Below, one piece after another: positions 1 to 41,523 of a stretch of 41,523 nucleotides of DNA. Every line of letters begins with the position of its first letter. Position 1 is the first letter of the stretch. Position numbers and translations under genes: made by a program. The DNA comes from a virus: the IMG/VR virus record IMGVR_UViG_3300044816_000064, positions 1 through 41,523 of that record. The stretch is one strand, 5' to 3'. Under the pieces are notes generated by a model. It ran no database searches. It was not told the origin of the DNA and was given only the letters and a program-made list of their open reading frames with translations.

Positions 1-127
1 CGTGTAGTCCACGAAGCAATCGAGCAGCGTGTACTTGCCATCGATGCGCGGGGGGGCGTAATCGACGCCCGGCACTAGCCAGCGTAGCTTTCCGCCGCGA
101 CCGTCGAAAAGACCAACGGCGTAGCTC
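1..127. repeat. Terminal direct repeat, left copy
   Basis: Bases 1-127 are identical to bases 41397-41523. The repeat sits inside the recombinase gene and ends in the middle of its first codons, so it is not a natural boundary. It is best read as the overlap left when a circular or circularly permuted molecule was assembled. A genuine short terminal repeat of a linear phage is less likely, because such ends rarely fall inside a gene. Confidence 0.93.
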
Positions 128-5810: not shown

Positions 5811-6730
5811 GCGCGAAGCCCGACATCAAACCGGAAGTCATTGGACCCGCTGCGCTATACCCGAAAGTCGAAGCCCTCTGGCATAGCGGGTTGCCTCCGG
5901 GCGAGAAGACCGGCTGGCCATCGCTCGACAAGCATCTGTCGATCGCGGAAGGACAGTTAACGATCATCACGGGTTGGCCTGGAAGCGGTAAGTCGGAATG
6001 GCTCGACGCACTCCTCGTGAATCTCATGCACCAGGGCTGGTACACGGCGTACTTCTCGCCGGAGAACCGACCGATCGAACTCCACGTCGCCAAGGTGTTG
6101 GAGAAGATCGCGGGCAAGCCATTCGGGAAGGGGCCTTCGGAGCGCATGACGATTCAGGATGTGCGCGAGCTCACCGTTCACATGGCCGCCTCGCGCTTCT
6201 GCTGGATCGAGCCGCCCGAAGAGGAATCGTCATTGACCGTGAACGAGGTCATCGAGGCTGCGACGCCTTGGCTCGAGCTTCGCCAAGGCCCTAAACGTGC
6301 CCTGGTCATTGATCCTTGGAACGAGCTCGAGCACTGGCGTCCGCCGCAGATGAGCGAGACCGAATACGTCTCGAAGTCGCTCTCGCGGGTCCGCAACTGG
6401 GCGCGCAAGCATCGCGTTCACGTCTTCCTCGTCGCCCACCCGCAGAAGATGCGCCGCGAGGCCGATGGAAAGCTTCCCATTCCCAAGCCGGACATGATTT
6501 CGGGATCACAGCATTGGTGGAACAAGGCGGACGTCTGCATTACGGTCTATCGCAAGATGGACGACTTCGAGGATCCCAACGTCGAGATTCACGTCCTCAA
6601 GGTGCGTTTCAAGCACATCGGACGCCCCGGGATCGTGACCCTGATTTACGACAAGGTCACGGGACGCTATCGCGAGATGGTGACAGTCCGCGACGTCTCG
6701 GCCTATCGCAACAAGGGAGCCGACGAATGA
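5807..6730 (+). CDS. DnaB/Twinkle-like RecA-fold replicative helicase
   Basis: 307 aa from the ATG overlapping the initiator stop. Walker A is GWPGSGKS at residues 56-63, preceded by ITIITG-type strand, and Walker B is ALVIDPWNEL at about 165-174. A sensor-like FLVAHPQKMRR follows near residue 206. Only the RecA-like C-terminal ATPase domain is present; there is no DnaB N-terminal domain and no primase zinc finger, so priming must come from the host or elsewhere. It would unwind DNA at the fork. Gene order initiator then helicase is standard for temperate phages. Confidence 0.82.
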   Translation: MSAKPDIKPEVIGPAALYPKVEALWHSGLPPGEKTGWPSLDKHLSIAEGQLTIITGWPGSGKSEWLDALLVNLMHQGWYTAYFSPENRPIELHVAKVLEKIAGKPFGKGPSERMTIQDVRELTVHMAASRFCWIEPPEEESSLTVNEVIEAATPWLELRQGPKRALVIDPWNELEHWRPPQMSETEYVSKSLSRVRNWARKHRVHVFLVAHPQKMRREADGKLPIPKPDMISGSQHWWNKADVCITVYRKMDDFEDPNVEIHVLKVRFKHIGRPGIVTLIYDKVTGRYREMVTVRDVSAYRNKGADE

Positions 6731-10933: not shown

Positions 10934-11224
10934 ATGCCCGCACCCCCCGGAATGAAGGCGCTCGGATACCAGCAGATCACGTCGCTATCGGCTGCGACGG
11001 CCCTCACGGTGCCCGCTGGCGCGGTCCTCGCGATGTGTACGCCGGAGACTCAAGCCGTTCGCTGGCGCGACGACGGGTCGAATCCGACCGCCTCTGTCGG
11101 CTACCCGCTCGCCGTGGGCGCGGAGCTTCGCTATGACGCGGCGCAAATGGCGGCTGCGAAGTTCATCGAGCAAGTCGCCTCCGCGAAATTGAACGTCGTG
11201 TACTACGGCTTCCAGCCCTTCTGA
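10934..11224 (+). CDS. Small virion-module protein, 96 aa
   Basis: Begins eleven bases after the terminase stop with GAGGAGAA as ribosome binding site. It is a beta-rich protein (TVPAGAVLAMCTPETQAVRW and VGYPLAVGAELRY) with a C-terminal aromatic end. This pattern is common in small phage proteins that form a single jelly-roll or ligand-like domain on the head. A structural protein is likely; no name can be given. Confidence 0.6.
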   Translation: MPAPPGMKALGYQQITSLSAATALTVPAGAVLAMCTPETQAVRWRDDGSNPTASVGYPLAVGAELRYDAAQMAAAKFIEQVASAKLNVVYYGFQPF

Positions 11225-12012
11225 TGGAAACCTACACCAACGGGGTCCCCTACAACCCAGCCGCTGTTGGTATTACTGGAGGAGTGCTAACGGGGACGAA
11301 CGTCCCGTATGACATCGCAGCGGGTGCTGTGCCGGTTATCAAAGTCTCCTCCGGCACGATGGGAAATAACGGGGCGCTGTCTGGAATTACGGCCCTCGGC
11401 AGAACCTATAGCGGCGGGGCGTGGCTCTACCTTCCGGCTGGCGCGGTTGCGGCTGGCGTTCCAGCCGCCGCTGGATTCCAGTGGGGGGTGGGCTCCTCGA
11501 CCACAGCCTTCACGGTCTACAACTCGACGTGGAATGGCACGGGTGCGCCGCCTATTGGCGTGCAGACGGCCTTCGTTACGACGGGTCCGGGCGCGTTCAC
11601 CGGGGACACGACTGAACAGGGCATTGCGATCACCGTTCCTGCTGGCGCGATGGGGCCGAACGGTTATATCGAAATAGTTGCGGTTTTTAGCCACACCAAC
11701 AGCGCGGGCAACAAGGTGCCGCGCCTCCGGCTTGGTGGTGTTGGCGGAACTTCGTATGCGGGGGCGAATGCGCTCACCACAACGGTCCATGCCGCGGTTT
11801 ACGCGAAGGTCAGCAATACGGGCGTGCAAAACGCACAGGTCGGAACGATTGGTGCGGCATTTGGCGGTCTTGGCACTTCGACAATCGCACCAGCTACCGG
11901 GTCCGTCGATACCTCGGCATCTACGACTGTTTACATCAGTCACACGAACGCTGTCGCCACCGATAACACGGTTATTGAATCGTGGCATGTGCGATGCAAG
12001 TACGGCGCTTAA
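11224..12012 (+). CDS. Putative virion surface or fibre-like protein, 262 aa
   Basis: Gly, Ala, Thr and Val-rich beta protein without cysteine clusters or enzymatic motifs. Segments such as YSGGAWLYLPAGAVAAG and TVPAGAMGPNGYIEI fit a jelly-roll or receptor-binding head domain. ATG overlaps the previous stop. It is followed 20 bases later by the inverted-repeat cassette, so it may once have been adjacent to the portal gene. Could be a decoration protein or short fibre. Confidence 0.6.
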   Translation: METYTNGVPYNPAAVGITGGVLTGTNVPYDIAAGAVPVIKVSSGTMGNNGALSGITALGRTYSGGAWLYLPAGAVAAGVPAAAGFQWGVGSSTTAFTVYNSTWNGTGAPPIGVQTAFVTTGPGAFTGDTTEQGIAITVPAGAMGPNGYIEIVAVFSHTNSAGNKVPRLRLGGVGGTSYAGANALTTTVHAAVYAKVSNTGVQNAQVGTIGAAFGGLGTSTIAPATGSVDTSASTTVYISHTNAVATDNTVIESWHVRCKYGA

Positions 12013-12031: not shown

Positions 12032-12053
12032 CGATAGTATGGAGTTATTGAAA
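12032..12053 (+). repeat. Left 22-bp terminal inverted repeat
   Basis: Begins CGATAGTATGGAG and matches the reverse complement of 13468-13489 in all 22 positions. Similarity fades immediately outside and only a few bases agree further inside. Confidence 0.9.
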
Positions 12054-12070
12054 GTGTGGGCTTTTTGCCC

Positions 12071-12111
12071 CGCCGAAATAGGTCCGGCGACTCACCTCGG
12101 GGAGAGGTGAG
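12071..12111. other. Two strong hairpins inside the left end of the cassette
   Basis: CGCCG (12071-12075) pairs with CGGCG (12085-12089), and CTCACCTC (12091-12098) pairs perfectly with GAGGTGAG (12104-12111) around a five-base loop. No T tract follows on the plus strand, so they are not a standard terminator. Subterminal hairpins like this are common in transposable elements and could also stop read-through into the cassette. Confidence 0.6.
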
Positions 12112-12126
12112 GAATGTTCCTAGCCG

Positions 12127-12452
12127 CTAGTTCCCCATCCAATCGCTGCCGCCACCGCGGCCGCCACCCCCGCGCGGTCGCGCGTTCACAACCGGGAGCG
12201 GCCTGTCTGGATCGGAAAAGAAATGACCGCCCATGGTGCAGCGCCAGCCATATTTCTCATTCGCCAGCGGATTGCGTTTGCCATCGTTTAGCGTTGAAGT
12301 GGATTCACCTCTCCTTGCAGACGCAGGTTCTGCGTCTTGAGGGATTGTATCTCCGTCTCCATCGCCGAAAACTCCTCATCGAGCGCGAGCATCTGCTGCT
12401 TCTTTTGAACCGGCATGGCAATGCCACGAAATGCGTCCGCAAGTCGCCCCAT
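12127..12452 (-). pseudogene. Small coiled-coil gene, apparently frameshifted
   Basis: From the ATG at 12450-12452 a 54-codon frame ends at 12288 and encodes a coiled-coil (QQMLALDEEFSAMETEI, then LKTQNLRLQGEVNPLQR). In the -1 frame the sequence continues with good coding character (GKRNPLANEKYGWRCTMGGH, then a Gly/Arg-rich tail) to a TAG at 12127-12129, but that part has no convincing start of its own. Coiled-coil followed by a short domain starting near a NEKYGW motif fits one protein split by a frameshift. Alternatives are two tiny genes or programmed -1 frameshifting. Function unknown. Confidence 0.45.
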
Positions 12453-12456
12453 GATT

Positions 12457-12732
12457 AATCCCCAGCATTCGACTGTGAATCACAGCCGTAAGGAATACGC
12501 GCGCACTGGCGGCATCACGACGAACTCCATCGAGGGCTATTTCGGCATCATCAAACGCGGGTTGGGCGGCATCTATCACTCCGTCTCGGAGCAACACCTT
12601 CATCGCTATCTTTCCGAGTTCGATTTTCGCTACTCGTTTCGCGATTTGTCCGATGGCGAGCGTGCAAAGCTCGCGGTGCGCAGCGGAGACGGAAAGCGTC
12701 TTACCTACCGAGCGATGGTTGGTGATCTATGA
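12457..12732 (+). pseudogene. IS1595-family transposase, C-terminal fragment
   Basis: About 92 codons read NPQHSTVNHSRKEYAR, then TTNSIEGYFGIIKRGLGGIY and HLHRYLSEFDFRYSFR, the C-terminal signature of IS1595 (ISXO2-like) DDE-type transposases, where the HSTVNHS and N-x-IEG parts surround the last catalytic residue. Full-length relatives are around 300 residues, so the zinc-finger and the catalytic Asp residues are missing. The homology stops abruptly at about 12455, where the start of the opposite-strand coiled-coil gene lies. A dead remnant. Confidence 0.8.
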
Positions 12733-12800
12733 GTTGCCAACTCAGGACAAGTGAGGAAAAGATTCTTTGACGAGCTTGTCCCATTTTGAAAAAATGTCTT

Positions 12801-12906
12801 TGGTGGGGGATAGGGGAATCGAACCCCTACGGGCATTGGTTCTCTTCTCACGGAGATGCCCGGCAGCTTCCAAGGCTGCTGTGTCTACCAGTTTCACCAA
12901 TCCCCC
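12801..12906 (-). tRNA. Class II tRNA with leucine-type body and UGG anticodon
   Basis: A complete cloverleaf: acceptor GGGGGAT/ATCCCCC, discriminator A and encoded CCA; D stem GTG/CAC with Leu-type loop AAACTGGTAGA; anticodon stem GCAGC/GCTGC with loop CTTGGAA; T stem AGGGG/CCCCT with loop TTCGATT. The anticodon is TGG (12870-12872), which reads CCA (proline). The variable region is 34 bases long, with a seven-pair stem CGGGCAT/ATGCCCG. A long arm, the D-loop form and A73 are features of tRNA-Leu; proline tRNAs are class I with a short variable loop. One change, A to G in the middle of a Leu UAG anticodon, would give this. If charged by LeuRS it would put leucine at CCA codons. It may also be a decaying gene. 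Confidence 0.8.
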
Positions 12907-12961
12907 CACTCGGGGGCGGGTCCAGGATGTTCTGGAAAACCTCGCTGGACCCGCCATCCGT

Positions 12962-13390
12962 TTACTGCCCTGCCGCTCCCTTCGCGGCCAACACCTGCGC
13001 AATGCCCCCGAAGAACGCCGTAATTCTGGCGGGGTCCCATCCTGCAATCTCAGCCATATCTACTTTGACGGTGACGTTGAACTGGATGCCGTCTACGCTC
13101 GGCTGAGGGGCTGCGCGAACGATGTGCGACGCAGTGGGCGGCGGTTGGGCTGGCTTGTCGGGTGTGACGGTGTCTGTAGCGGACGCAGGTCGCTCCTGCG
13201 CCCCCGTGGTGGCGCCATCAGCAGCGAGCTTCACCATTTCATCGGCGCGCACGACCAAGCCCGCGGCTTCCATGTAGTCGAGCAGGACGCGAAGCTGCGG
13301 CTCGTATTCCGGCGCGGCGTTACACGCATCGGCAAGGTGCTTGATCGCTTCCTTTTCGGTGTACGGGCGGAACGTGAGCCCCGGCATCAA
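12962..13390 (-). CDS. Unrecognised cassette protein, 142 aa
   Basis: N-terminal helical part with a winged-helix look (EPQLRVLLDYMEAAGLVVRA), then a Pro/Ala/Thr-rich linker, then a beta-alpha end (FNVTVKVDMAEIAGWDPARI and ITAFFGGIAQVL). The last part resembles the C-terminal strand-helix of DUF5343-like proteins, but the match is weak. Start at 13388-13390; ATG at 13385-13387 is an alternative. It lies upstream of the tRNA on the same strand and could share its transcript. No function can be given. Confidence 0.6.
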   Translation of the reverse strand: MMPGLTFRPYTEKEAIKHLADACNAAPEYEPQLRVLLDYMEAAGLVVRADEMVKLAADGATTGAQERPASATDTVTPDKPAQPPPTASHIVRAAPQPSVDGIQFNVTVKVDMAEIAGWDPARITAFFGGIAQVLAAKGAAGQ

Positions 13391-13467
13391 GCTTTGCGCG
13401 AACCACGTTTCCCGAATCGATGGCGCGAGCTTGTGAGTGGCGTTATCCGCGTCCCGGGGAACCCGAT

Positions 13468-13489
13468 TTTCAATAACTCCATACTATCG
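13468..13489 (-). repeat. Right 22-bp terminal inverted repeat
   Basis: Perfect inverted copy of 12032-12053. Its outer end lies 30 bases before the portal start codon, so it sits in the leader of the portal gene. Confidence 0.9.
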
Positions 13490-13519: not shown

Positions 13520-15925
13520 TTGACCACCGAAAGCCCCATCGGTTACTGGCTGAGCGAGATCAAGGCCGCGAAAAAACGCGACAAGGATTATCGCAAGGAC
13601 GGGCTTCGCATCCTTGAAATCTACGGGGGCGAGAAGAGCGACACCATCCCCTTCAACATCCTCTTTTCCAACACGGAAACGCTGCTGCCGACGCTCTACT
13701 CGGCGGTCCCGAGACCGGTTGTCGATCGCCGCTTCAAGGACGGGGACATGGTCGGGAAAGCCGCCGCGACCGCAGGACAGCGGGTCCTCGAGTTCCTTCT
13801 GGACACCAACGTCGATGGTTACGAGACCTACGACGAGGCGATGCGTGCAGCGACGCTTGACGCGTTGCTCCCTGGCCGTGGCGTCACTTGCGTCAAGTAC
13901 GACGCCGAACTGGGGCAGTTGCCGACCGCGAGCGTAGACGACTCGACACCCGCCTCCGAGGACGCGAAAGGGGAGCCGGAAAAGGAAGGTGCCGCCCCCG
14001 GAGAGAAGGAACCGACCCCGTACAAGAAATCCGAGCTCGTCTGTTGCGACGCGCGATCGTGGAACCGGGTCCTCTTCGGCTACGCCAAGAAATGGTCGAA
14101 GGTCCCTTGGATCGCGTTCGAAGAGAACGTGGACAAGGAAGAGGCGACCCGGCTTTTCGGAAAGCCGATTGCGGAAGCTCTCGTCTATACGACGACTGCC
14201 GAAGAGGAAGACGAGGAAAAGAAAAAGAACAAGAACAAAGGGGAGACCCAGACCGCCACGATCTACCAGATATGGGACAAGGACGGCGGGCGGAAAGTCC
14301 GCTATGTCGCGGAGCAGTTCAAGGAAGCGTTCCTCAAGGTCGAAGACGATCCCCTTGAGTTGACGGGCTTCTACAACCTTCCCAAGCCCATCCAGTTCAT
14401 CGAGAAGTCGAACGACCTCACTCCCGTGGCTCCGTACACGCTGTACGAGAACCAGGCGAAGGAGTTGAACCGGCTCACCAACCGCATCAACAAGATCATC
14501 CAGGCGATCAAGGCCCGGGGGATCTACGACGGCGAACTTGGCGAAGACATCGCCAACGTGATGAAGCTGGACGACAACGAACTCGTCGCCGCCGACAAGA
14601 ACTCGTCCCTCGCGGCGGAAAAAGGTCTCGGCAACGCGATCTGGTTCATGCCGGTCGAGCAATTGGTGAACGTCCTTCGTGAGCTCTACACCGCGCGAGA
14701 GAATTGCAAGGCGGTCATCTTCGAAATCATGGGCCTCGCGGACATCATGCGCGGGGCTTCGCAGGCTTCCGAGACCTTGGGAGCCCAGCAGATCAAGCAG
14801 ACGTGGGGAAGCCTTCGCTTGAAGCGCCAGCAGAAGGAAGTCCAGCGCTACGCGAGGGACCTCCTGCGCTTGATGCTCGAGCTCGCGGCGACGAAATTCT
14901 CCGAGGAGACGTGGGCCAAGATGACCGGCCTTCCCTACCTCACCGCCGAGCAGTTCGCGAAGGCGCAAGCCATCGCGCAAGCCGCGCAACAGCAGATTCA
15001 GGCGGCGCAAGCGATGCCGCCCCAAGTGGATCCGCAGACGCAGCAGCCCATGCCGAATCCGCAAGTGCAACAGGCGCAGCAGCAGCTTCAACAGGCCCAG
15101 CAGGAGTTGCAGAAGCCCCAGTGGAGCCAGATCCTCGGGATGTTGAAAGACGACATCCAAAGGTCTTACCGCATCGACATCGAGACCAATTCGACCGTCG
15201 AGCCGGAAGCCGTTGAAGACCAGAAGAACATCGCGGACGTGATGAACGCGCTGGGTCAATACCTGAACGGCGTGGGACCTCTGGTTCAAAAGGGCGTCAT
15301 GCCCTTCCAAGCCGCGCAAGCCATGATGCTCGCGATCGTGCGTCGGTTCCGCTTCGGAGCCGAGATCGAGGACTACATCCAGCAGATGAAAGCCCCCGCT
15401 CTGGAGGACAACTCGGGGGACTTGAAGAAGCACGCTGCGGAACAGCAGACCAAGGTTCAAGAGACCCAGATCAAGTCGCAGGCGGAAGCGCAGCGTCGCC
15501 AGGACGAGCATGCAGCGGAGAAAGCGCGCAGCGACGCCGAGACGCAGCGCTACCTTGCCGAGCAGGAGACGAAGCGCCAGGAGATCGGCGCGGAGCTTAC
15601 TCGCGATCGCGAGCAGCGCGAGTTCGAACGTCGAGAGAAACAAGCCGAGCGCCAGTCCCAGCGGGCTATCGAGTCCGACAAGAGCCGTTGCGAGCAGGAC
15701 ACCGAGCTTCGCAAGGCCGCTCTTCAAGCTGCGGTTGCCATCGAGACCGCCGCGATCTCCGCGACGAAGAGTGCGGAAGCAGCGACTTCCGCCAACGAAG
15801 CGGCCGGGACTCAGGTGGCCAACACCGCCGAAGTCATGGCGCGGATCCTCGAACGACAGGAACAGATGCTCGCGATTGTCACGGCGCCGCCCAAGTTCGT
15901 GAAAGGCCGCGATGCCCACGTATGA
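13520..15925 (+). CDS. Portal protein
   Basis: 801 aa, TTG start behind GAAAGGCAG. The N-terminal half shows the usual portal pattern of podophages: NILFSNTETLLPTLYSAVPR, then GVTCVKYD, a long acidic/Lys insertion, PYTLYENQAKELNRLTNRIN and FEIMGLADIMRGASQASETLG, the last being the stem region with the conserved Ser/Ala cluster. The C-terminal 300 residues are Gln- and Ala-rich coiled coil (QQQIQAAQA, QQAQQQLQQAQQEL) and then a very charged helix, compatible with a P22-type barrel reaching into the head. Twelve copies would form the DNA channel. Directly followed by zinc-ribbon and scaffold genes. Confidence 0.88.
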   Translation: MTTESPIGYWLSEIKAAKKRDKDYRKDGLRILEIYGGEKSDTIPFNILFSNTETLLPTLYSAVPRPVVDRRFKDGDMVGKAAATAGQRVLEFLLDTNVDGYETYDEAMRAATLDALLPGRGVTCVKYDAELGQLPTASVDDSTPASEDAKGEPEKEGAAPGEKEPTPYKKSELVCCDARSWNRVLFGYAKKWSKVPWIAFEENVDKEEATRLFGKPIAEALVYTTTAEEEDEEKKKNKNKGETQTATIYQIWDKDGGRKVRYVAEQFKEAFLKVEDDPLELTGFYNLPKPIQFIEKSNDLTPVAPYTLYENQAKELNRLTNRINKIIQAIKARGIYDGELGEDIANVMKLDDNELVAADKNSSLAAEKGLGNAIWFMPVEQLVNVLRELYTARENCKAVIFEIMGLADIMRGASQASETLGAQQIKQTWGSLRLKRQQKEVQRYARDLLRLMLELAATKFSEETWAKMTGLPYLTAEQFAKAQAIAQAAQQQIQAAQAMPPQVDPQTQQPMPNPQVQQAQQQLQQAQQELQKPQWSQILGMLKDDIQRSYRIDIETNSTVEPEAVEDQKNIADVMNALGQYLNGVGPLVQKGVMPFQAAQAMMLAIVRRFRFGAEIEDYIQQMKAPALEDNSGDLKKHAAEQQTKVQETQIKSQAEAQRRQDEHAAEKARSDAETQRYLAEQETKRQEIGAELTRDREQREFERREKQAERQSQRAIESDKSRCEQDTELRKAALQAAVAIETAAISATKSAEAATSANEAAGTQVANTAEVMARILERQEQMLAIVTAPPKFVKGRDAHV

Positions 15926-31608: not shown

Positions 31609-31704
31609 TGGGGAAGCTGATGGGCTTCCATCGCGTTCGTGAGCATCCATGGTTCCACGTGGAGCATATAAATCAACGATGTAACGATTCGTGGACAGGG
31701 GCAA
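31609..31704. other. Intergenic region upstream of attP core
   Basis: No gene seen. Contains a palindrome TCCACGTGGA near 31652, a GGAAGC/GCTTCC hairpin near 31615, and a GTGGAC copy near 31691 like those in the operator region. It could hold arm-type integrase or excisionase sites. No T-tract terminator for the late operon is visible here. Confidence 0.4.
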
Positions 31705-31754
31705 ACGGACTTTTAATCCGTTGGTCACTGGTTCGAATCCAGTACGCCCTACCA
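31705..31754 (+). other. attP core: 3' half of a tRNA-Lys(UUU) gene
   Basis: From the anticodon stem to CCA the sequence folds as a tRNA 3' half: stem ACGGA, loop CTTTTAA (anticodon TTT), stem TCCGT, variable TGGTC, T arm ACTGG-TTCGAAT-CCAGT, acceptor ACGCCCT and ACCA. Acceptor 5' strand and D arm are absent, so this is no functional gene. The integrase ends 14 bases away. Phages that integrate into tRNA genes carry exactly this identity segment so that the host tRNA is restored. Host site is therefore predicted to be tRNA-Lys(UUU). Confidence 0.88.
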
Positions 31755-31767
31755 ATAAAACAAGGAC

Positions 31768-32772
31768 TTACGCAGCCTTCTTCGCCTTTGCCCGTTTCCT
31801 GATGGGATCCTGATGGGCTAGGGCCGTGGTAAGGGCCTGCCTCTTGGCCGCGACGTCGGTGTGGACGTAGCGCCTGTGAGTCTCGACGGACTTGTGCCCC
31901 ATGAGGTCCATGGACACCCTCAAATCCGCGTCAGAACGCGCCAGGGCGCTCGCCACCATGTGGCGGAGGTCGTGATAGCGCAGGGATAGCCCAGCGGCTT
32001 CCCGGGCCCGCTCGAAGCCCCTGTAGACGTTCCTCCAGCCTGCCCGGAATGGGATCTGCCCAAGGTGCGGCCGGAGCTCGGCCAGGATGGGGATGATGCG
32101 ATCGCTCCCGTTCTTGGTGTCTCGAGCCACGATGACGCCGTCGTGGATGTCGGAGGGCTTCAACTTGAGGACTTCCCCGAGACGCATCCCCGTGAACGCC
32201 GACAGGGCGATCAGGGCCTTCGCCCGGGGACTGCTGGCCTTCTCGATCAGGAGCCGAGCGTCGGCGGGGGTGACGTCCCGGCGCGTGTATTTCGGCTCCG
32301 GGAGGAGTTGGATCTTCCCCGAGAGGTTTTCTTCCGTCCAACCTTTGCGCCACGCGAATTTGGCGACGGCTTTGAGGACGCAGAGGCGGCGATTTCGAGT
32401 TGCCGGAGATAGTCGTCCATCTTCGCGTATAGCTCCGACAAGGCTCCCCGTATCTTGTACCGGGCAATCTGGATTATCTCGGGCGACAAGTCCGAGTACG
32501 GTTGCGGCATGGGAGCGGGTTTGGTCTTCGCTCTTGCGACCCTTGACGACTTCTTCAAGCCAGCTTTCGATCGCGTAGCGGAGCGTGACATTCGGCCTCT
32601 TTCCTAAGACGACTTGGTCAATGAGCTCGTTGCGGAGACGAGCTTCAAGCTGGGTCGCCTGACCTTTCGTTGCGCTGGGCGGGAGCCGTCTGAAAACACG
32701 ATTTCCGCTCGTCTCGAACTCGACTTTCCAGCGGTTGCGCCCCCGCGTATCGACCCACGGCTTGACTGACAC
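31768..32772 (-). CDS. int: Phage integrase (tyrosine recombinase)
   Basis: 334 aa. N-terminal arm-binding domain (MSVKPWVDTRGRNRWKVEFE), core-binding domain about residues 60-155, and catalytic domain with Arg197 (TGMRLGEVL), Lys220, His267/Arg270 (YHDLRHMV), His293 (MGHKS) and Tyr302 (HRRYVHT). All catalytic residues are present. The gene ends next to attP and would catalyse integration into tRNA-Lys. An excisionase-like gene overlaps its 5' end. Confidence 0.93.
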   Translation of the reverse strand: MSVKPWVDTRGRNRWKVEFETSGNRVFRRLPPSATKGQATQLEARLRNELIDQVVLGKRPNVTLRYAIESWLEEVVKGRKSEDQTRSHAATVLGLVARDNPDCPVQDTGSLVGAIREDGRLSPATRNRRLCVLKAVAKFAWRKGWTEENLSGKIQLLPEPKYTRRDVTPADARLLIEKASSPRAKALIALSAFTGMRLGEVLKLKPSDIHDGVIVARDTKNGSDRIIPILAELRPHLGQIPFRAGWRNVYRGFERAREAAGLSLRYHDLRHMVASALARSDADLRVSMDLMGHKSVETHRRYVHTDVAAKRQALTTALAHQDPIRKRAKAKKAA

Positions 32773-34927: not shown

Positions 34928-35158
34928 ATGCCTAAACGCTCAAGCAAACAATCGGACGCCAATTCCGCCGCATTCCGCATCGTCGCGGAGGCCACCGGCG
35001 ATATGCCCGACCTTGAGGGTAAGAATCCCGCTGCCGTCATGCTGGGGCGGCTGGGCGGACTCAAGGGCGGCAAGGCCCGGGCCGAGGCTCTGACCCCTGC
35101 CAAACGCGCTCAAATCGCCAGGAAAGCGGCTATGGCACGTTGGAAAACTAAGAAGTAG
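34928..35158 (+). CDS. Short basic Ala/Lys/Gly-rich protein, 76 aa
   Basis: Begins MPKRSSKQSDANSAAFRIVA and carries MLGRLGGLKGGKARAEALTP, then AQIARKAAMARWKTKK. This is a widespread small bacterial family (often labelled histone-like), mostly basic and probably nucleic-acid binding; function unknown. It stands at the start of the cargo block, convergent with the Ntn-hydrolase gene, and the two overlap by 11 bases at their ends. Confidence 0.7.
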   Translation: MPKRSSKQSDANSAAFRIVAEATGDMPDLEGKNPAAVMLGRLGGLKGGKARAEALTPAKRAQIARKAAMARWKTKK

Positions 35159-36116
35159 GGGTCGCACCCTTTCCCTTTCGCCTGGGTTTAGCTTTGGTGT
35201 CTTGCGCTTTCTCCTGCTTTGCCTCCGCCCCGGTTTTAAGATCCTTCGGCTGATTCATACTTTCCGTTGCTTGTGCGGCCTGGACCTTTGCGGCCTCAGC
35301 CAAGCCGTCCAAAAACCGCTGGACCTTTGCCTCGGTTTCATTGGCCACAATTTGAGTGGCGTGCTGATGTTCTCGGTAGATTTGCTCCAGCGGCATGAGC
35401 AGGTCATAGGGAATGGTGTTGAAGCTGTTGGGATCGGGACCGACGACAAACATATCCGTCCAAGAATCCCCAACCCCGGGAGCGACCTCGGACCGACGTT
35501 TTGCGACATATGTACGCAGCAGCGTTCGGGCAATGGTTTCGAAGCGCGTGTGTTTCGAAATCATGAAGTGCGAATTGGCATGCACGGCACCGACGCCAAT
35601 AGCCGCGAACCCCAGCGGGTCTTTGCAACTGACCTCGCCGTCGTCCACGACGTACAGATGACTGCCCCTGTCGTCCACGCCAGCGATTAGCACCCCTACC
35701 TCAAGCTGAGGATATGAGCGAATGTTGTCCGCGAGTCGCCGCGAAAAGTCAGGCGACATATCCCGTTGTTTGTCGATAAAGCTTCCCAGCGTTAGTCCTA
35801 GCGGTCTCAATAAATCGCGTTCCGCAAACTTTGCGTGCGCATCCATCCAAAGGCTTTGGTACAGGTAGGCAACGTCCCGTACCCGCCATGGCTTTGCAGG
35901 TTGATTGCGGAGGCGGTCTTGCACGGCAGACCATAGGTCCGCCCAAAAATCGGCGTGAAGCCCGAGGTCGCCAGCCACCATGACGGCTATAGAGTCCGTG
36001 AGCTTCCAAATCTTCTGCATGGGCGGCTCAAATTCGACGTCTCCCGCCGTAATCATTCGATCCGACGCCCCGAATATCGCCCCGGTCTCACAAATCGCCG
36101 CGACACAGACAGTCAT
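35148..36116 (-). CDS. Proteasome-like Ntn-hydrolase
   Basis: 322 aa. N-terminus MTVCVAAICETGAIFGASDR, then MITAGDVEF...QKIWKL and IAVMVAGDLG, the pattern of proteasome beta, HslV and Anbu-like proteins: removal of Met would expose Thr2 as nucleophile, with the ASDR Asp and a Lys near residue 36 in the usual places. The core ends near residue 235; the remainder is a charged Lys/Glu/Ala/Gln tail (TGAEAKQEKAQDTKAKPRRK). No ATPase or cap partner is present. Start at 36114-36116 is required by the N-terminal nucleophile logic. Cargo gene with visibly lower GC than phage genes. Confidence 0.78.
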   Translation of the reverse strand: MTVCVAAICETGAIFGASDRMITAGDVEFEPPMQKIWKLTDSIAVMVAGDLGLHADFWADLWSAVQDRLRNQPAKPWRVRDVAYLYQSLWMDAHAKFAERDLLRPLGLTLGSFIDKQRDMSPDFSRRLADNIRSYPQLEVGVLIAGVDDRGSHLYVVDDGEVSCKDPLGFAAIGVGAVHANSHFMISKHTRFETIARTLLRTYVAKRRSEVAPGVGDSWTDMFVVGPDPNSFNTIPYDLLMPLEQIYREHQHATQIVANETEAKVQRFLDGLAEAAKVQAAQATESMNQPKDLKTGAEAKQEKAQDTKAKPRRKGKGATPTS

Positions 36117-36231
36117 AGGAACCCCCCGTTTACGGTGCGGGGAAATCCTACGCTCGGGAGCGTCCTCAAGTAGCCGCTTGACAATGCTTGAGCGGTCAAG
36201 CATAATGACTCCGATAGGTAGAGGGGGTCAA

Positions 36232-40552: not shown

Positions 40553-41523
40553 TTAGTGCAACACTCGCGTGTCGTCCTGCAGGTCGGTGGGAAGTACGTG
40601 CGAATAAGTGCGCTCAATCATCGTGATCGTGTCGCCCAGCATCATTGCGACGCGATGGATTGGCGCTGGCGGAATGCCGCGGTCCTTGTCACCACGCAGC
40701 ATCCAGGTTGCTACCGTGTGACGCGCAACGTGACGCGCGACACCGCGCTCCTTGATGCCAATCCACGCCAGATCCCGTTTGCACTCGTGGTAAAAGCGAA
40801 CCCTGCGAGTAGCGCTTGCCTTTGCGGTTCACCACGAACGGGCAGGACGGGTCGCGGCGCGCGTAGGCAGTCTCAAGCCGGGGCAGAAGTGAGTCGTTGA
40901 TGAAGACCACCGCGCGGCGCTTGTTCTTGTAAACGACGCCCTCGCGGCGGTAGTCGATCGTGCGGCGCACGAGATCCACACGACTCCATTCGAGGTCGAG
41001 AATCGCGCCCGTTCTCGCTCCAGTCCCGAAGGCGAGCAGCCAGAACAGTTGCCGGGGACCGGGCTTCGGCAATAGCATCAGCTTGCGATGCTCCTCGCGC
41101 GTCAACCAGCGAAGGCGAGGCTGCGCTGCGGCTGGCATCTGGAAGGCCGGGAGCACCTTGTCCTTCCCGAGACGCTCTTCCTTGCGAGCATGGTTGAACG
41201 CCGCGAGGCCCATCGTCAGATGCTTGCGGGCTGTGGCGCTCGACACTCCACGGGCCAGTTCGCGCTCTACAACCGTCCGACCGTCGGCGCGGGTGAGCGT
41301 GATGCATTCACGATTGAGGCCGAGGGAGTCGATCCACGCACGGAAGGCGATCCAGGCGCGCTTGGCGTCACCGCCGGTCGGGACGCAATGCTCCCGCGTG
41401 TAGTCCACGAAGCAATCGAGCAGCGTGTACTTGCCATCGATGCGCGGGGGGGCGTAATCGACGCCCGGCACTAGCCAGCGTAGCTTTCCGCCGCGACCGT
41501 CGAAAAGACCAACGGCGTAGCTC
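40553..41523 (-). pseudogene. Second tyrosine recombinase, main part, frameshifted
   Basis: Continues the gene that starts at 129. The frame contains core-binding and early catalytic parts: LLAFGTGARTGAILDLEWSR (catalytic Arg in ARTGAIL) and VVYKNKRRAVVFINDS (Lys). Near 40815 the homology shifts by one base into another frame, which carries VARHVARHTVATWML (His-x-x-Arg) and MMLGDTITMIERTYSHV (Tyr) and ends at 40553. In the first frame translation ends at 40689 without the C-terminal catalytic residues. Either the gene is dead, or the shift is an error or is programmed. All catalytic motifs survive across the two frames, except that Gly-Asp replaces Gly-His. Confidence 0.8.
41397..41523. repeat. 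Terminal direct repeat, right copy
   Basis: Identical to bases 1-127; see the left copy. The two copies represent the same DNA on a circular map of 41,396 bp. Confidence 0.93.

What the first reader, a model, noticed from the sequence alone, without database searches (positions are those of the whole stretch)
12032..13489. IR-bounded cassette in the late operon, possibly transposable or invertible
Perfect 22-bp inverted repeats enclose a dead IS1595 transposase fragment, a tRNA, one unrecognised gene and one broken gene. The cassette lies between two structural genes and leaves both intact. No target duplication is visible. Without its own enzyme it may be moved in trans as a MITE-like passenger, or flipped by one of the two tyrosine recombinases.
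Basis: partly seen in the sequence, partly recalled or inferred. Interest (0 to 1): 0.72.

Follow-up and report, generated by a model that had tools for sequence, protein, structure and literature searches.

The report
Broken tRNA-carrying transposon in a phage
The segment is a crippled jumping gene of the known IS1595 family sitting between two phage structural genes, and it belongs to a previously unremarked branch of that family whose members carry an odd transfer RNA: a leucine-type body with a proline anticodon.

Summary
Perfect 22-bp inverted repeats (12032-12053, 13468-13489) enclose the C-terminal part of an IS1595 transposase, a minus-strand tRNA and a minus-strand unknown gene, between two intact phage genes, with no target duplication. 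The repeats are the terminal inverted repeats (TIRs) of an IS1595-family transposon. They match the TIRs of one transposase clade in viral contigs at up to 17/22 positions, against at most 12/22 for 54 other IS1595 elements. A search with the repeat alone, four positions left open, hit a single contig: twice, inverted, around an intact IS1595 transposase with an 8-bp target duplication. The transposase fragment is closest to that clade, and its convergent tRNA has a counterpart 95% identical over 42 nt in the same place in one member. The segment is therefore an internally deleted, transposase-dead copy, movable at most in trans. Nothing supports inversion by a tyrosine recombinase. The unexpected part is the tRNA. 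Most members of this clade, and several of a neighbouring one, carry class II (leucine-like, A73) tRNAs with anticodon UGG or AGG (Pro) or UGC (Ala), never a leucine anticodon. I found no description of this in the papers searched; the tRNA's function is untested.

The parts
12032..12053 (+). left terminal inverted repeat CGATAGTATGGAGTTATTGAAA
   Evidence: exact inverted repeat; 17/22 to TIRs of IS1595 clade A, max 12/22 to 54 other IS1595 elements; degenerate form finds L231 twice, inverted, around an IS1595 transposase
12288..12452 (-). 54-aa minus ORF (coiled-coil-like), possible gene remnant
   Evidence: translation; no relatives found
12466..12732 (+). C-terminal fragment of an IS1595-family transposase; N-terminal two thirds missing
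   Evidence: PF12762 E=1e-15, positions 97-152/153; best match L153 63.6%; groups with clade A on C-terminal columns
12801..12906 (-). class II tRNA gene, leucine-like body, anticodon UGG (Pro), A73, 34-nt variable arm, encoded CCA
   Evidence: Rfam 53.9 bits; cloverleaf parse; 5' half 95% over 42 nt to the tRNA beside the L157 transposase
12962..13390 (-). unrecognised passenger gene; frame open without a start codon to 13483, perhaps truncated at its 5' end by the TIR
   Evidence: translation; no family in Pfam, NCBIfam, PHROGs, PADLOC; no match in 385 genomes of one class
13468..13489 (-). right terminal inverted repeat
   Evidence: as for the left arm
11224..12012 (+). intact left flanking gene
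   Evidence: homologue in the related phage contig L005
13520..15925 (+). intact right flanking gene, portal protein
   Evidence: PHROG 12082 E=1.4e-150

Best explanation
The cassette is an internally deleted, transposase-dead copy of an IS1595-family passenger-carrying transposon, from the transposase branch called clade A here. Its 22-bp repeats are the terminal inverted repeats that an IS1595 DDE transposase would bind and cut. The original layout was TIR - transposase - convergent tRNA - passenger gene - TIR; most of the transposase and some neighbouring sequence were lost, leaving the ends, the tRNA and one passenger. It inserted, or was carried by recombination, into the accessory gap between the terminase region and the portal gene, where relatives carry other genes. 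It cannot move by itself; a related transposase supplied in trans could still act on its perfect ends. Shown: the identity of the ends, the family of the transposase fragment, the tRNA and the shared architecture. Inferred: mobility in trans, and that the target duplication was lost by flank exchange or adjacent deletion.
For: (1) The window repeat matches TIRs of clade A at 13-17 of 22 positions, against at most 11 for clade B and 12 for 54 other IS1595 elements with TIR and duplication; among 83,002 22-mers of the window only the two arms reach 17; 2 of 200,000 shuffles do. (2) A scan of 2.9 million viral contigs with the repeat, four positions open, returned one contig (L231) with two inverted matches enclosing an intact IS1595 transposase; the flanks read TTATTTTT on both sides. 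(3) The transposase fragment is closest to L153 (63.6%) and, on its own columns, nearest L153 and L157; holding it with clade A raises the likelihood by 27.6, p-AU 0.85. (4) L157 has the same order: TIR, transposase, then a convergent class II UGG tRNA just downstream, 95% identical to the window tRNA over 42 nt. (5) Four UGG-tRNA elements have TIRs and a perfect 8-bp duplication (L140, L141, L149, L150), and so do L152, L153, L156, L159, L162, L165 found by transposase. (6) Related phages carry other genes or almost nothing at this place.
Against: No 8-bp target duplication in the window, although L157 and L158 lack one too. The exact 22-mer occurs nowhere else searched. A FastTree of full transposases placed the 88-aa fragment outside clade A (27% of columns filled). 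About 410 bp between the left TIR and the fragment has no identified origin. Single metagenomic assembly; no reads examined. The degenerate pattern was written after seeing clade A ends.
Confidence: 0.9

Rival explanations
1. An invertible segment: the repeats are recombination sites at which a phage tyrosine recombinase flips the 1.46-kb segment, switching expression of the minus-strand genes.
For: Perfect inverted repeats and a phage integrase elsewhere in the genome.
Against: The repeats match IS1595 transposon ends; the only confirmed integrase is 18 kb away next to a tRNA-Lys; nothing in the segment looks like a switch and both neighbours are complete.
Confidence: 0.03
2. A chance or assembly-made inverted repeat around a random piece of host DNA captured by the phage.
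For: Contents include decayed sequence of unknown origin; the 22-mer is unique.
Against: No other 22-mer of the window comes as close to clade A transposon ends; transposase, tRNA and ends all point to one element lineage.
Confidence: 0.04
3. An actively spreading MITE-like family: the deleted copy is regularly mobilised in trans by intact relatives and carries the tRNA as its cargo (a stronger form of the best explanation).
For: Perfect ends while the inside is decayed; intact relatives exist in viral contigs.
Against: Only one copy known, no target duplication, no second cassette with the same ends and other contents.
Confidence: 0.15

Closest known systems
IS1595-family transposons with passenger genes ('tIS': tISCpe8, MTnSag1/tISSag10; Siguier et al. 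2009 as cited in PMC5704250)
   Same: DDE transposase of the ISXO2-like family, TIRs of about 25 bp, passenger genes between transposase and far TIR, direct-repeat target duplication in intact members (8 bp measured here)
   Different: Here the transposase is truncated and no duplication is seen; the clade carries a class II tRNA with Pro or Ala anticodon, not mentioned in the papers found
Allo-tRNAs (Mukai et al. 2017, reviewed in PMC7609411), including an allo-tRNA(UAU) pseudogene overlapping a transposon-related ORF
   Same: class II-like tRNAs whose anticodon does not fit their body, one linked to a transposon-related gene, suspected link to transposable elements
   Different: Allo-tRNAs have an 8/4 or 9/3 acceptor branch and mostly serine identity; the tRNAs here have a normal 7/5 branch, leucine-type D arm and A73
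Mistranslating tRNASer(UGG) variants made in yeast (PMC6827378)
   Same: class II tRNA whose charging ignores the anticodon, given the Pro anticodon UGG
   Different: laboratory construct with serine; here natural, leucine-type and carried by transposons
MITEs and internally deleted insertion sequences
   Same: intact ends, no working transposase
   Different: longer, keeps a tRNA and an ORF; mobility in trans not shown

Membership tests
IS1595-family transposon (defective copy) | transposase of PF12762 / IS1595 type | tested here: met
   fragment E=1e-15, C-terminal part only; a working transposase is absent
IS1595-family transposon (defective copy) | TIRs related to those of elements with close transposases | tested here: met
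   17/22 to clade A, at most 12/22 to 54 others; L231
IS1595-family transposon (defective copy) | 8-bp target duplication (a trace of insertion, not part of the element) | tested here: not met
   4/8 identical, chance level; present in 10 tRNA-bearing relatives, absent in L157 and L158
IS1595-family transposon (defective copy) | passenger layout transposase - tRNA - passenger between TIRs | tested here: met
   same order in L157, L140 and L141
Invertible DNA segment | dedicated recombinase beside the segment | tested here: not met
   none within the segment or in the genes flanking it
Invertible DNA segment | both orientations in the population | not testable with these tools
   no reads
Leucine tRNA | A73 and long variable arm (identity elements listed in PMC9976931) | tested here: met
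Leucine tRNA | leucine anticodon | tested here: not met
   anticodon UGG
Allo-tRNA | 12-bp acceptor branch, 8/4 or 9/3 | tested here: not met
   7/5

The most novel reading that the evidence does not exclude
A branch of IS1595 transposons, many of them in phages, has kept a trans-acting tRNA that is charged with leucine but reads proline (or alanine) codons: a natural, mobile missense tRNA selected for its effect on translation, for example as a modulator of host or phage proteins or as a decoy for tRNA-cutting enzymes of the defence and toxin systems with which these transposons travel. The window holds a copy in which the tRNA outlived the transposase.
Probability: 0.3. Interest if true: 0.85.

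Novelty: new variant of a known kind. Interest (0 to 1): 0.6.

Why it matters
Passenger genes in IS1595 elements are known; a tRNA as a recurrent passenger is, as far as I could search, not. If these tRNAs are charged with leucine and read Pro codons, they are naturally selected, horizontally moving genetic-code modifiers, and the listed loci make this testable at once in laboratory E. coli. For annotation, the case also shows that long-armed tRNAs are missed by ARAGORN's default settings, and that TIR comparison can identify a transposase-less cassette in a phage.

Tried and rejected
Single-subunit RNA-polymerase promoter reading of the repeats: the right arm ends in ACTATCG, but there are no further copies and the left arm would fire against the operon. 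Hairpin-loop target or palindrome split by an insertion: AT-rich arms, replaced by the TIR match. Target duplications of other lengths (checked by eye): none. Exact 22-mer in viral contigs and genome contigs: nothing. Transposase fragment and passenger as single queries in viral contigs: nothing. Passenger gene in phages, plasmids and 385 genomes: nothing. Leu-to-Pro codon use in transposases of tRNA-bearing elements: at 10 Leu-rich columns no proline among 130 cells, so no sign that the transposase itself is recoded. General IS1595 TIR profile against the window repeat: only moderate (177th of 83,014 16-mers); the clade-specific comparison was decisive. tRNA inside 18 intact alphaproteobacterial IS1595 elements: none, so the trait is not general. 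FastTree with full-length columns placed the fragment elsewhere; not trusted because 73% of its columns are empty. Structure prediction was not run: nothing in it would decide the question.

Full report
What is there. The window is a virus record of 41,523 bp (G000) with a 127-bp end repeat. Between gene 11224-12012 and the portal gene 13520-15925 (PHROG portal) lies a 1,458-bp segment bounded by perfect 22-bp inverted repeats. The repeats occur nowhere else in the window with up to three mismatches, and in no shuffle. Inside are the last part of an IS1595 transposase on the plus strand (PF12762 positions 97-152 of 153, E=1e-15), a tRNA on the minus strand (Rfam 53.9 bits) and a minus-strand ORF without known family. 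A 54-aa minus ORF at 12288-12452 may be a remnant; I could not show it. No target duplication is visible.

Surroundings. Relatives of the portal (14 viral contigs, 48-60% identity) mostly keep the order terminase, accessory genes, portal; the gap varies from under 60 bp to 2.6 kb and holds different genes, likewise in the phage MW202489. None carries the cassette or its repeat. L005 has a homologue of the upstream gene and a 408-aa gene in the place of the cassette. The segment is therefore a local acquisition at a variable place. That a flank was lost with the old gene, taking the duplication with it, is inference.

The tRNA as a lead. The tRNA has a leucine-type D arm, a 34-nt variable arm, A73 and an encoded CCA, but the anticodon UGG. 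A pattern for a leucine-type D arm with this anticodon loop gave 3 viral and 10 genomic contigs. In four of these the tRNA lies inside an IS1595 element with matching ends and a perfect 8-bp duplication: L140 (TTACTAAT), L141 (ATTGGTAA), L149 (AATTTTTT), L150 (TCTTTCCT). L030 and L033, from two Chloroflexi genomes, share the transposase-tRNA block at 92.6% identity in different surroundings, with different passenger genes. The remaining pattern hits show no such element.

Survey of IS1595 elements. In 190 genomes of the class of G009, 40 have the family; in 150 genomes of the class of G012, 17. Thirty-two elements with TIR and duplication were delimited in the loci held at that point, including four chosen through the tRNA; they are about 1-4 kb long and many have room for passengers. 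None of 18 alphaproteobacterial ones has a tRNA between its ends. In viral contigs a transposase profile found 80 loci. There tRNAs cluster in two transposase branches: clade A (10 transposases, support 100; 8 with a class II tRNA) and clade B (10 transposases, support 95; 5 with one). The search that brought these loci in did not use the anticodon. The ten class II tRNAs it added (L152, L153, L156-L162, L165) have anticodons UGG six times, AGG once, UGC twice and GGA once; none is a leucine anticodon. All 15 parsed tRNAs, the window's included, form the cloverleaf with many compensated stem pairs and all have A73. The tRNA lies downstream and convergent in some elements and upstream on the same strand in others, so a product acting in trans is likelier than a role of the DNA in place (inference).

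Placing the cassette. The window repeat agrees with clade A ends at up to 17 of 22 positions (L153, L158), with clade B at most at 11 and with 54 other IS1595 elements at most at 12; 2 of 200,000 shuffles reach 17. The transposase fragment is closest to L153 (63.6%). On its own columns its nearest rows are L153 and L157, and holding it together with clade A gives a higher likelihood (p-AU 0.85). The window tRNA is 95% identical over 42 nt to the tRNA that follows the L157 transposase in the same orientation. Finally, the repeat with four positions left open was scanned against all viral contigs: one contig, L231, with two matches, inverted, 2.6 kb apart, around an intact IS1595 transposase, with TTATTTTT on both sides. 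L231 carries no tRNA, so the tRNA is common but not obligatory. L157 and L158 also lack a duplication.

How it works. The ends are those on which an IS1595 DDE transposase would act (family knowledge). The cassette encodes no complete catalytic core, so it can move only with a transposase supplied by another element; this is inferred, not shown. A tyrosine recombinase has no visible part in it.

What the tRNA may do. Bacterial leucine identity rests on A73, tertiary contacts and the long variable arm rather than the anticodon (PMC9976931). The likely consequence is leucine at Pro codons; this is inference. A tRNASer given the UGG anticodon mistranslates in yeast (PMC6827378). Transposases of the tRNA-bearing elements show no proline at 10 leucine-rich columns, so they do not seem to rely on recoding. 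Passengers of the same elements include SLFN_AlbA_2, IrrE/HTH (RmrA in PADLOC), a Panacea antitoxin, Bro-N and ClpP-like proteins, i.e. defence, toxin and stress genes. Whether the tRNA serves them is unknown.

Comparison with the known. IS1595 elements with passengers are established (PMC5704250, citing Siguier et al. 2009). A transposon-linked odd tRNA has been reported among allo-tRNAs (PMC7609411), with another structure. I found no report of tRNA passengers in IS1595 elements among the hits of the open-access paper searches; I read only a few of those papers, and subscription papers and ISfinder were not available.

Limits. All viral loci and the window are metagenomic or uncultivated-virus assemblies. 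The first four tRNA elements were chosen by anticodon and were left out of the anticodon tally above. L160 has TIRs without a duplication and L161 only one recognisable end.

Noticed in passing
window 35148-36203 (-): 351-aa phage gene with a match to the proteasome subunit family (PF00227, E=1.2e-7), unusual for a phage; no PHROG.
   Followed up: no
window 31676-32772: Integrase gene (minus) beside a weak tRNA-Lys match (30 bits), a likely attP of a temperate phage.
   Followed up: no
L021, L024-L029, L031, L032: Leucine-type tRNAs with anticodon UGG outside any IS1595 element that I could delimit, several in alphaproteobacteria with variable arms of about 30 nt or more.
   Followed up: partly
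L157:4964-5078: tRNA with a 46-nt variable arm, and a second, serine-like class II tRNA with anticodon CGC at 6231-6317 in the same element.
   Followed up: partly
TIRs of intact IS1595 elements (L100-L230): Many ends contain TTGACA at both sides, so each end may hold a -35 box of an inward promoter, one for the transposase and one for the passengers.
   Followed up: no
L150:7643-7780, L153:2215-2448, L231 about 5944-6087: A small basic protein ending in KK(R/K)P..GWP recurs beside the far end of clade A elements.
   Followed up: no
L150-L231: IS1595 passenger transposons are frequent in viral contigs and carry defence, toxin-antitoxin and stress genes such as RmrA, Panacea, Bro-N, ClpP-like and SLFN_AlbA_2.
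   Followed up: partly
window 1-127 and 41397-41523: 127-bp direct end repeat: the record is a circular or terminally redundant assembly.
   Followed up: no
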